Assembly (NCBI GenBank): GCA_034401795.1
Contig: CM067366.1
Coordinates: 73,827,087-73,891,086, forward strand
Length of the DNA stretch: 64,000 bases
Source: Chaetoderma sp. LZ-2023a
Taxonomy: Eukaryota; Mollusca; Caudofoveata; Chaetodermatida; Chaetodermatidae
Direction of reading: 5' to 3'
In this document: piece after piece, positions 55,601-61,600 of the stretch
Layout of the letters: each line of letters begins with the position of its first letter
How positions within the stretch are numbered: position 1 is the first letter of the stretch
Program-made: the position numbers and the translations under genes
Notes under the pieces: model-generated
The model's database searches: none
The model's input: the letters and a program-made list of their open reading frames with translations, nothing else
What the model was told of the DNA's origin: nothing

Positions 55601-58600
55601 CCGGTGTCTAGCGAATCACCAGACACGGATTCCCCGCAATCCATCGGCTCCCGCACGGGATCCGGGACTACGACCGCCTTAACTACGGCTGGTACCGTCA
55701 CTCCGATAGGAGCCGCACCTAACGCCGCCGGGATACCAGCAGGAACCGCAAAACACGGCTCCGCCGGCATTGCCGGTTGCACAAATAGCGGATGGAATAT
55801 GCCCGACGGAACGTCGACATCACCATCCGCCTGGCAAACCCGTACAAATCCCGAGGGCGACCCCTGGGACGTACTAGGCATTGCCGTCATCGAAAGATCC
55901 GGCATGCCGGAATCCTCCATTAGCAGCAGATCTTCCTCCTCTACCGTCGGCTCTTGAGCCAAGGACAGAGAAGGGGCAGGTGCATGCCCCTCAGCAGAAC
56001 TAGCCGGACCACCTAACGGTTGTCCTGCACCAGCTTGCCTCACCGGGACCGTGGACTGCAACGAGTAAAACATCGCCTTGAACTGGGCCGCCCATACGCC
56101 CAGCGCTGAATCCATTCGTTCATTCAGACGACCTTCAAGTCCCATAAGAGACGCCTGCTGCACCTTCGCTGCCTTGTCCTTCGCGATCCTCTCCAGCCTC
56201 GCACGTCGATCCCTGTCAAACTCTGCCACCATTGCCGACGACCACTTCACGCACACATCACAAGGGCTGCCGACTTTACACTGAGCGCACGCCACACAGT
56301 GATGTCCCAAGTACTTCCGCTTCATGAACCTGTTGCACTTCTGGCACAACGTGTCCGGATTCTTAGGTTTCTGCGAACACAGAGAAAAATTAAAATGCTG
56401 CACATGACAAGCGATGACGAGCACACGCACAATCGACTTGATAGTTAAGATTTCTTAAACACATTAACTTTCTCTTAAATTAATGATAATCAAGTTCTTA
56501 GGCAGGAAATATTTGAAACTTTTTTGAGTGAAAATTTTTTAAAAACACAACTCAGCCTTTAACTAATGTTAAATAACCAAGAATAACTCGCCGATCACTA
56601 CAAACACCCTCGACAATGAAGCGAGAGCTAAAATCGGCGACAACAGAGTGCCTGGATACACCAAGCCAAGAACGACATAATTCATGGGCGCCGCCATCTT
56701 GGCTAAGGGCGCATCCATCTTAGAGGAACCGAGTCGCAAGAGAAAATTAACCGAGTACCCGAATTAAAACTAAAAGTCAACGGGTACAGAAGCGACTCCA
56801 ACAATGGCTATCATTATAAAACAATGTGCCAATTTAAGGAAATTTCAAACAGTCATTATGGCACGAATGTATAAATTCTAGATTGATACAACCTGCCCCT
56901 GTGATGATTTCCCCAGTTCCTCCATGAATCCAACGATGGTTTTCTGAAAAAACACGCTAAAACTGCTTATTCAATTAATAAGAGAGCACTAAATACACGC
57001 GACTTTCAACAAGCGCAAAATAGACGAATCTGACTGTGATTGGGAATTGACTCGGTACCTGCGGCTATGGTATTCCCGGACACAGTAGGGGCAGGACCAG
57101 GAGAGTGCGGAGTTTTAATTGTTTATTTTGAGCTAGACTAGATAATAGACATTATCATAATAGTACATCTGGTAAGTATTATTCGAAGTAGAACCAACAT
57201 TGTCATACCTCTGCATCCCAGATGATGTCGTCTTCCCAGTTGCCGTAGATCAGAGCATCATTCTCAATGGGAAATATTGAATACCAAGTACTTGAGTGGC
57301 CGTCATGTCCATCTGTATAGATAAAGTTACATTAGGAATATTGAATACCAAGTACTCTAGTGGCCATCATGTCCATCTGTATAGGTAAAGTTACATTAGG
57401 AATATTGAATACCAAGCACTCGAGTGGCCATCATGTCCATCTGTATAGGTAAAGTTACATTAGGAATATTGAATACCAAGCACTCGAGTGGCCATCAGGT
57501 CCATCTGTATAGATACAGTTACATTAGGAATATTGAATACCAAGTACTCGAGTGACCATCATGTACATCTGTATAGATACAGTTACATTAGGAATATTGA
57601 ATACCAAGTACTCGAGTGGCCATCATGTCCATCTATATAGATAAAGTTACAGTAGGAATATTGAATACCAAGTACTCGAGTGGCCGTCATACCCATCTGT
57701 ATAAATAGTTGCATTAGGAATATTGAATACCAAGCACTTGAGTGGCCATCATGTCCATCTGTACAGATAGTTACATTAGGAATATTGAATACCAAGTACT
57801 CGAGTGGCCATCATGTCCATCTGTATAGATAAAGTTACATTAGGAATATTGAATACCAAGCACTCGAGTGACCATCATGTTCATCTGTATAGATAGTTAC
57901 ATTAGGAATATTGAATACTAACCACTCGAGTGGCCATCATGTCCATCTGTATAGACAGTTACATTAGGAATAATGAATACCAAGTACTCGAGTGGCCATC
58001 ATGTCCATCTATATAGATAAAGTTACAGTAGGAATATTGAATACCAAGTACTCGAGTGGCCATCATGTCCATCTGTATAGATAGTTACATTAGGAATATT
58101 GAATACCAAGTACTCGAGTGGCCATCATGTCCATCTGTACAGATAGTTACATTAGGAATATTGAATACCAAGCACTCGAGTGGCCATCATGTCCATTTGT
58201 ATAGATAAAGCTACATTAGGAATATTGAATACCAAGTACTCGAGTGACTATCATGTACATCTGTATAGATAAAGTTACATTAGGAATATCGAATACTAAG
58301 CACTCGAGTGGCCATCATGTCCATCTGTATAGATAGTTACATTAGGAATATCGAATACTAAGCACTCGAGTGGCCATCATGTCCATCTGTATAGACAGTT
58401 ACATTAGGAATATTGAATACCAAGCACTCGAGTGGCCATCATGTACATCTGTATAGATAAAGTTACATTAGGAATATCGAATACTAAGCACTCGAGTGGC
58501 CATCATGTCCATCTGTATAGACAGTTACATTAGGAATAATGAATACCACGTACTCGAGTGGCCATCATGTCCATCTATATAGATAAAGTTACAGTAGGAA

Positions 58601-61600
58601 TATTGAATACCAAGTACTCGAGTGGCCATCATGTCCATCTGTATAGATAGTTACATTAGGAATATTGAATACCAAGCACTCGAGTGGCCATCATGTCCAT
58701 TTGTATAGATAAAGTTACATTAGGAATATTGAATACCAAGTACTCGAGTGACCATCATGTCCATCTGTATAGATAAAGTTACATCAGGAATATTGAATAC
58801 CAAGCACTCGAGTGGCCATCATGTCCATCTGTATAGATAGTTACATTAGGAATATTGAATACTTAGCACTCGAATGGCCATCATGTCCACCTGTCTAGAA
58901 AAAGTTACATTAGGAATATTGAACACTTAGCACTCGAGTGGCCACCATGTCCATCTGTATAGACAGTTACATTAGGAATATTGAACACCAAGCACTCGAG
59001 TGGCCATCATGTCCATCTGTATAGATAGTTACATTAGGAATATTGAATACCAAGCACTCGAGTGGACATCATGTCCATCTGTATAGATAGTTACATTAGG
59101 AATATTGAATACCAAGCACTCGAGTGGCCATCATGTCCATCTATATAGATAAAGTTACAGTAGGAATATTGAATACCAAGTACTCGAGTGGCCGTCATGT
59201 CCATCTGTATAGATAGTTACATTAGGAATATTGAATGCCAAGCACTCGAGTGGCCATCATGTCCATCTGTATAGATAAAGTTACAGTAGGAATATTGAAT
59301 ACCAAGTACTCAAGTGGCCATCATGTCCATTTGTATAGATAAAGTTACATTAGGAATATTGAATACTTAGTACTCGAATGGCCATCATGTCCATCTGTAT
59401 AGATAGTTACATTAGGAATATTGAATACCAAGCACTCGAGTGGCCATCATGTCCATCTGTATTGACAGTTACATTAGGAATAATGAATACCAAGTACTCG
59501 AGTGGCCATCATGTCCATCTGTATAGATAAAGTTACATTAGGAATATTGAATACCAAGTACTCGAGTGGCCATCATGTCCATCTGTATAGATAAAGCTAC
59601 ATTAGGAATAATGAATACCAAGCACTCGAGTGGCCATCATGTTCATCTGTATAGATAAAGTTACATTAGGAATATTGAATACCAAGCACTCGAGTGGACA
59701 TCATGTCCATCTGTATAGATAAAGTTACATTAGGAATATTGAATACCATGCACTCGAGTGGCCATCATGTCCATCTGCATAGATAGTTACATTAGGAATA
59801 TTGAATACTAAGCACTCGAGTGGCCATCATGTCCATCTGTATAGATAAAATTACATTAGGAATATTGAATACCAAGTACTCGAGTGGCCGTCATGTCCAC
59901 CTGTAAAGTATGGCTCATAAATAAGTTAAATTGTTTCCAAAACCACAACAGAAACATGATAATTAGTAAAATTTTGAACGCAGTGTTCTGTTGAATATTT
60001 TGGAGTTAATTTGATTGGAAACCAATGCTGCCTAATGGTTCTAATCAAACTAAGTAAAAAATATTCAACAGATATTGTTATATTTTGTTTTGGAAATAAT
60101 CGATATTAATTCTGAGGTGCATTGTGAAGTCAAATCAGGACATGAAGTGTTAAAACACTTTTAAGCATTTGAAACCAAAAGACTAAGAACGAAAAATTAT
60201 TTACAATGCAAGAACTATCATATTGAATATTTTGAAGCTAATTTAGAAGCTGTTGCAGCCTATGGTAGCAACAGATTCCTGTCGAATTAGTTTCAAAATA
60301 TTAAACAGCTTACCTGTAGTTACCTTGAAATTGTGATTCTGGACATTAAGGGTTCAAAGAACAATTCATCCGACAAACACTGTTCATTCACCCATTTCCC
60401 TTCTCCAACACTTTCATCGACCCTTCTAAAGCACTTTCACTCACCCTCTTCCAGCACTTTCAACCACCACTTATAGATGCATGCATACATGTGAGCGAGG
60501 ATGTTTGCCTTAGTTAATCGTCATTCTAGCATCTGAACTACAGACAAGCGAACATGGATATATCAGCCAGATATATCAAAAGACCAAGACACTTGCATAC
60601 ACATGCTCACATATCTGGTGTGTGTGTGCGTGCATGCATGCGTTCCTGTTCAAGTGCGTGTCACTCTATGGTACAACTTGTGACATTTCATTTATAACAT
60701 TTTTTCTCAGTACTATGAACATTTTGTGATGCAGCACATTGGCAGGCGAGGTATTGTAACACAGGATTGATGTACCAGATTTGATGCAAATCCATGCAAG
60801 CAATCAAAAGTTACTCTCCAGAAGCCTGTTGGGTTGACTGGAGATGAAACGTGGTGATTTTTATAGATGGTTTTATAAAACAGGACTATTTCACACATTG
60901 TTATTATTATTATTATTTCTACTACTGTATTATTCATACCCATCATTCCTGGTCTGCCTTGTGTCTTGCCTCCGATAACAGCGCTCCCTGGTGCACGACC
61001 AGACTGGATTCTCACTGCCAATTAAAATTAATTAGTTAAGGTGCATATTCACACCAAAATGCTTGAAAATAAAATTGTTAAAAGTATATACTTCTAGAGG
61101 CTTACATCTAGGCAAGATGTAAAGAAACAAAATTAATTTCATTACGCGTAAGTTAATACAATATTTTAAGCTATGAAATTAAATTAGAGACACGAGTCCA
61201 TAATTTAATTTCACAACTAAAAAAATTATACTAATTCATGTGTAATGTTATCATCACGATCATATATTAAAATTTATTTCATTTATTTACATCTAGGCAC
61301 ACAATCTAAGGCTCTAAAATTATAAAAATTTTAACAATTTTATTTTCAAGCATTTTGGTATGAGTATCAATAGATATCTTTATTAACCAAGGTTTTGTCA
61401 TCAGTAAACCCCTCTTTACGATACAATATACAATCAGCTACAAGTGAAGACGTAAGGATGTGCTAGCCATGTTAGGCTGCTGAGGATATTAAACCTTGCT
61501 GAACTCGTGTTAAAATCTTAAATTTTTAAACTAAATTAAAGATTGAACTGGTGTTAATTTTTCAACAAATTTGGTGGAAGCTGTTGCTGTCTACCATATC

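What the first reader, a model, noticed from the sequence alone, without database searches (positions are those of the whole stretch)
57271..59905. About 42 tandem copies of a TAF1 3' splice site plus exon start
Seen: the 62-64-bp unit is exactly the intron-2/exon-3 junction, with acceptor AG, upstream branch-like CTAAT/GTAAC and the first 42 nt of exon 3. Only the last unit runs into real coding sequence; all others lead to TAA about 16 codons after the acceptor, in the frame set by exon 2. The true acceptor looks identical to the decoys, so correct splicing must depend on position, on exon definition through the exon-3 donor, or on something else. Inference: copy number could tune TAF1 output through unproductive splicing. 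I know of no described array of this kind.
Basis: partly seen in the sequence, partly recalled or inferred. Interest (0 to 1): 0.87.

Follow-up and report, generated by a model that had tools for sequence, protein, structure and literature searches.

The report
Repeated splice sites inside TAF1 gene
Next to one exon of an animal TAF1 gene, the place where the intron ends has been copied about 41 extra times in a row; it is a very long example of a little-known kind of repeat, described so far in lancelets as "mirages", which RNA splicing apparently ignores.

Summary
On the minus strand, window 59905-57273 carries 42 modules of 62 or 64 bp. Each has a branch-like CTAAT, an acceptor and the first 40 nt of a TAF1 exon; only the last (57312) runs into real coding sequence. 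38 of 41 decoys keep an AG, and all 41 would give a premature stop, 34 of them after 16 codons.

Two points change the picture. First, the array is not alone: in the same gene a 29-bp array (6 donors, 46010-45822) and an 81-bp array (4 donors, 1534-1197) repeat an exon end plus donor, and in all three only the exon-side copy keeps the frame. [quoted passage not shown]

The decoy AG is no better conserved than the rest of the unit (P = 1.0). Most likely this is a neutral mirage-type minisatellite, with splicing at the exon-side copy through exon definition. Copy-number tuning by unproductive splicing is not excluded but unsupported. Host species undetermined; no RNA data. New member of a known kind, with unusually high copy number.

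The parts
57273..59905 (-). Array A: 42 modules of 62/64 bp, each with branch-like CTAAT, acceptor and 40 nt of exon start; 41 are decoys
57209..57312 (-). True exon E2 of TAF1 in the window (104 nt; [32 protein letters not shown] region), donor GAG|GTATGA
57313..57336 (-). True branch-like site, tract and acceptor of E2 (CCTAATGTAACTTTATCTATACAG)
61931..62150 (-). Upstream exon E1 of TAF1 in the window, donor AAA|GTAAGG
45822..46010 (-). Array B: 29-bp unit = 24 nt of exon E5 end plus donor GTAAG, 6 donors; exon-side donor after 45984 is in frame
45984..46094 (-). TAF1 exon E5
1197..1534 (-). Array C: 81-bp unit = about 42 nt of exon E16 end plus 39 nt of intron with donor GTAATC, 4 donors; exon-side donor after 1489 is in frame
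1489..1612 (-). TAF1 exon E16
46678..46858 (-). Array D: 31-bp unit, about 5.8 copies, starting about 20 nt after the E4 donor; holds no copied splice site (neighbour, not counted as a boundary array)

Best explanation
Array A is a mirage-type minisatellite. A stretch spanning an intron end and exon start of TAF1 was tandemly duplicated and then expanded to 42 copies by ordinary tandem-repeat turnover (shown: the repeat and what it contains; inferred: the expansion). The copies lie on the intron side. The mRNA is made by pairing the E2 donor with the acceptor nearest to it across the exon, so E2 stays 104 nt long and the whole array leaves with the intron (inferred from the open reading frame and published splicing rules; no RNA seen). 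The two donor arrays work the same way in mirror image: the exon-side donor is used. The decoys are neutral by-products; some leak into nonsense transcripts is possible but not needed.
For: 42 modules, only the exon-side one in frame. The same logic holds in two more arrays at other TAF1 exon edges. Sixteen exons without any array unit give an open frame of 741 aa. Decoy AG no better kept than the rest of the unit. Published mirages have the same anatomy, affect both exon sides, and did not disturb splicing by RT-PCR (PMC3087553; PMC3902484). Introns beside E2 are 4.6 and 8.0 kb, where sites closest across the exon are favoured (PMC9225289); with a duplicated beta-globin acceptor splicing went only to the distal copy in one study (PMC5389562).
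Against: No RNA. For 3' sites exon definition was reported only to weaken a general upstream preference (PMC9225289), so decoys could be used. The source of the unit's intron part is not evident in the flank (P = 0.09). Power of the conservation test is low because units are related. The host, and so its likeness to the amphioxus cases, is unknown.
Confidence: 0.8

Rival explanations
1. The array is a regulatory decoy. Splicing into any of the 38 intact decoy acceptors gives a long exon with an early stop, the transcript is destroyed, and the number of copies sets how much TAF1 is made.
For: All 41 decoys would lead to a stop. Most score like real acceptors; only 3% of other AG sites reach 6.8. 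Copy-number-variable intronic repeats can alter splicing, e.g. TERT VNTR6-1 (PMC11830802, abstract seen).
Against: Decoy AG not preferentially kept; stops arise by default in intron sequence; two other exon edges of the gene carry such arrays; published mirages were reported not to disturb splicing.
Confidence: 0.07
2. The array is an assembly artefact or is grossly wrong in length.
For: A mirage in the amphioxus draft genome was aberrantly assembled (PMC3087553); PGBD5 repeat numbers differ between two presentations of the genome (PMC3902484).
Against: 37 of 41 decoy units are distinct, with two unit lengths in a mixed order; two other arrays of the kind in the gene.
Confidence: 0.04
3. Units serve as small alternative exons, a step towards a new exon or intron: each holds an acceptor and 46 nt later a GTAAC that could act as a donor.
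For: An intron-gain model was proposed for amphioxus mirages (PMC3087553).
Against: The donor-like site scores 2.0, below all 16 TAF1 donors (3.1-12.2), and 17% of all GT sites do as well. A 46-nt exon would shift the frame.
Confidence: 0.03

Closest known systems
Mirages of amphioxus genes: Adh3, globins BflGb6 and BflGb9, TnC, PGBD5 (PMC3087553, PMC3902484)
   Same: Minisatellite-like tandem copies of an intron/exon boundary, on the acceptor or the donor side, with most but not all copies keeping AG/GT, and the outermost exon-side copy forming the real junction.
   Different: 42 modules here against 3-6 in BflGb6 haplotypes and 2-7 in PGBD5; three arrays in one gene; host not known to be a lancelet; splicing not tested.
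Intron gain by tandem genomic duplication (AGGT model; review PMC3443670, potato RdRp case PMC4974935; titles and abstracts seen)
   Same: Tandem duplication that carries splice signals.
   Different: There a new intron arises inside coding sequence; here an existing junction is copied into its intron and no new intron is needed for the open frame.
TERT intron 6 VNTR6-1 (PMC11830802, abstract)
   Same: Intronic array of tens of short units (38 bp, 24-66 repeats) linked to splicing.
   Different: The abstract does not describe that unit as a copied exon boundary.
Duplicated 3' splice-site test constructs (Reed and Maniatis 1986, cited in PMC5389562)
   Same: Identical acceptors in competition, the upstream one with only part of the exon.
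   Different: Two copies made in the laboratory, not 42 in a natural gene.

Membership tests
Mirage (tandem duplication of an intron/exon boundary) | Minisatellite-like tandem repeat | tested here: met
   41.7 copies, period 64, 91% matches
Mirage (tandem duplication of an intron/exon boundary) | Repeat unit spans an intron/exon boundary of the gene | tested here: met
   22-24 nt intron end plus 40 nt exon start
Mirage (tandem duplication of an intron/exon boundary) | Both acceptor and donor boundaries can be affected | tested here: met
   E2 acceptor, E5 donor, E16 donor
Mirage (tandem duplication of an intron/exon boundary) | Many but not all copies keep AG/GT | tested here: met
   38 of 41 decoys keep AG
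Mirage (tandem duplication of an intron/exon boundary) | Concerted evolution inside the array, with edges left out | tested here: inconclusive
   Some identical units and block similarity at 9 units' distance, but no clear edge effect
Mirage (tandem duplication of an intron/exon boundary) | Length instability between haplotypes or cells | not testable with these tools
   One assembly only; no genome held
Mirage (tandem duplication of an intron/exon boundary) | Regular splicing of the mRNA in spite of the copies | not testable with these tools
   No RNA data; open frame across 16 exons fits
Mirage (tandem duplication of an intron/exon boundary) | Host is a cephalochordate (where described so far) | not testable with these tools
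   Host genome not held, no eukaryote collection
Regulatory decoy splice sites | Decoy splice signals kept by selection | tested here: not met
   AG 3/82 changed versus 98/2506 elsewhere, P = 1.0; low power because the units are related
Regulatory decoy splice sites | Decoy use measured in RNA | not testable with these tools
   No RNA data

The most novel reading that the evidence does not exclude
The decoy acceptors are used at an appreciable rate, and the length of the array, which should be unstable, sets TAF1 output between individuals or cells through nonsense transcripts.
Probability: 0.07. Interest if true: 0.85.

Novelty: new member of a known kind. Interest (0 to 1): 0.42.

Why it matters
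Forty-two near-identical acceptors in a row, of which only one is productive, form a natural test of how splicing chooses among equal sites, far beyond the two-copy constructs used in vitro. Three boundary arrays in one gene suggest that duplication across exon edges may be frequent in this genome, which bears on how introns and exons change. If the host is not a lancelet, the kind is wider than described.

Tried and rejected
Whole genome of the host: not held. Rfam: no match. Origin of the unit's intron part from the distal flank: an alignment with gaps exists, but no better than shuffles (P = 0.09), and another TAF1 intron tail scores higher, so dropped. Enrichment by random placement of whole arrays: not significant (P = 0.16-0.51), but dominated by the long arrays; placing one founder unit per array is the fairer test (P = 0.003-0.015), yet it was chosen after seeing the arrays, so only suggestive. 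Array D beside the E4 donor: no splice site in it. The 45-bp array at 10063-10731 and the 27-bp array at 287-574: no exon boundary found in them. RNA folding of part of the array: ordinary (z = -1.1). Syn/nonsyn count on decoy exon parts: few events, not used as evidence. Higher-order blocks: weak (6 of 500 shuffles for blocks of 4 units). The original mirage paper (PMC117041) is not held. Literature searches for boundary arrays outside amphioxus found none, which in an open-access library is weak evidence.

Full report
Observation. TRF reports an array at 57273-59905 with period 64, 41.7 copies and 91% matches. Read on the minus strand it splits into 42 modules with spacings of exactly 62 or 64 bp. 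Each module has CCTAATGTAAC(TT)TATCTATACAG or a close variant, followed by 40 nt identical in register to the start of a coding exon. The last module, with exon start 57312, continues into coding sequence; the others return to the intron part. The outermost module has a different upstream sequence (...GCCATACTTTACAG), which marks the far edge of the array.

Gene. The two exons around the array match human TFIID subunit 1 (E = 2.5e-23). With a human TAF1 sequence recalled from memory as a guide, sixteen exons were placed between 62150 and 1489; joined at canonical sites they give 741 aa without a stop, and the translation matches Pfam PF12157 at 1.2e-151. The match begins near human residue 400, so earlier exons lie outside the window and the exon is not exon 3 of the gene; here it is E2 of the window. 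The introns hold retroelements with reverse transcriptase.

What the decoys would do. Splicing E1 to any of the 41 decoys and reading on gives a stop: after 16 codons in 34, 9 in five, 6 in one, 58 in one. Three decoys lack the AG (modules 10, 20, 28); four have TAG. With a small matrix from the 15 other TAF1 acceptors, the true site scores 8.1, and most decoys score 6 to 8, one of them 9.7; only 3% of AG sites outside the array reach 6.8. So most look like usable acceptors, and the true one is not the best.

The array is not alone. Using every TAF1 splice junction as a query, junction-spanning copies nearby were found for three of 32: the E2 acceptor (array A), the E5 donor (array B, 29-bp unit, 6 donors) and the E16 donor (array C, 81-bp unit, 4 donors). 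In B and C, as in A, only the exon-side copy keeps the frame; the others give a stop a few codons on. If 13 founder units of the observed periods were placed at random, 0.34-0.57 would be expected to hold a junction; three or more occur with P = 0.003-0.015. That test was designed after seeing the arrays, and a cruder version was not significant, so the enrichment is suggestive only.

Signs of selection. The AG of modules 2-42 is changed in 3 of 82 bases, the remaining positions of the unit in 98 of 2506 (P = 1.0). The units are not independent, so power is low, but nothing suggests that decoy function is kept or avoided. 37 of 41 units are distinct, three groups of identical units exist, and the best block similarity is between units 9 apart, as expected of tandem-repeat turnover. 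A 321-nt stretch of the array folds no better than shuffles (z = -1.1).

Known kind. [quoted passage not shown] PGBD5 and TnC are further cases (PMC3902484). The BflGb6 arrays have 6 and 3 units on two haplotypes, PGBD5 2-7. The present array meets the sequence features that could be tested; splicing, length instability and host could not be. The host is unknown: no genome is held, and I did not infer a lancelet from the resemblance.

How it probably works. The introns on either side of E2 are 4.6 and 8.0 kb. With long flanking introns the sites closest across the exon are favoured (PMC9225289), which here selects the true acceptor, 104 nt from the donor; for B and C it selects the exon-side donor. 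With a duplicated beta-globin acceptor, one study saw inefficient splicing that went only to the distal copy (PMC5389562). A caution: for 3' sites, exon definition was reported only to weaken a general upstream preference (PMC9225289), so some decoy use may occur. Decoy use is therefore a question for RNA, not a result.

Other readings. Units as small exons are unlikely, because the donor-like GTAAC scores 2.0, below all sixteen TAF1 donors. An artefact is unlikely because of the diversity and mixed order of the units, though copy number may be off.

Verdict. A real and extreme array, of a described kind, in a gene with two more. A neutral mirage spliced at the exon-side copy is the best reading (0.8); regulation by copy number is open but unsupported (0.07).

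Noticed in passing
45822-46010 and 1197-1534: Two further tandem arrays in the same gene copy an exon end with its donor (29-bp and 81-bp units); not mentioned in the finding.
   Followed up: yes
46678-46858: 31-bp array, 98% matches, starting about 20 nt after the E4 donor without containing it.
   Followed up: partly
10063-10731 and 287-574: A 45-bp array (15 copies) and a 27-bp array (10.7 copies) within TAF1 introns or downstream, with no exon boundary found in them.
   Followed up: partly
12463-12516 and 12760-12813: The intron tail before exon E8 has an inverted copy at 96% identity about 300 nt upstream.
   Followed up: no
13661-17958, 22047-27109, 28726-33840, 37967-42413, 51407-56454: Five retroelement blocks on the minus strand, inside TAF1 introns; the one at 52255-54837 has reverse transcriptase and RNase H domains, and their layout resembles DIRS-like elements (my reading, not tested).
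   Followed up: partly
45634-45707: A 36-bp unit repeated twice in an intron, holding a donor-like GGTAAG, not part of any exon found.
   Followed up: no
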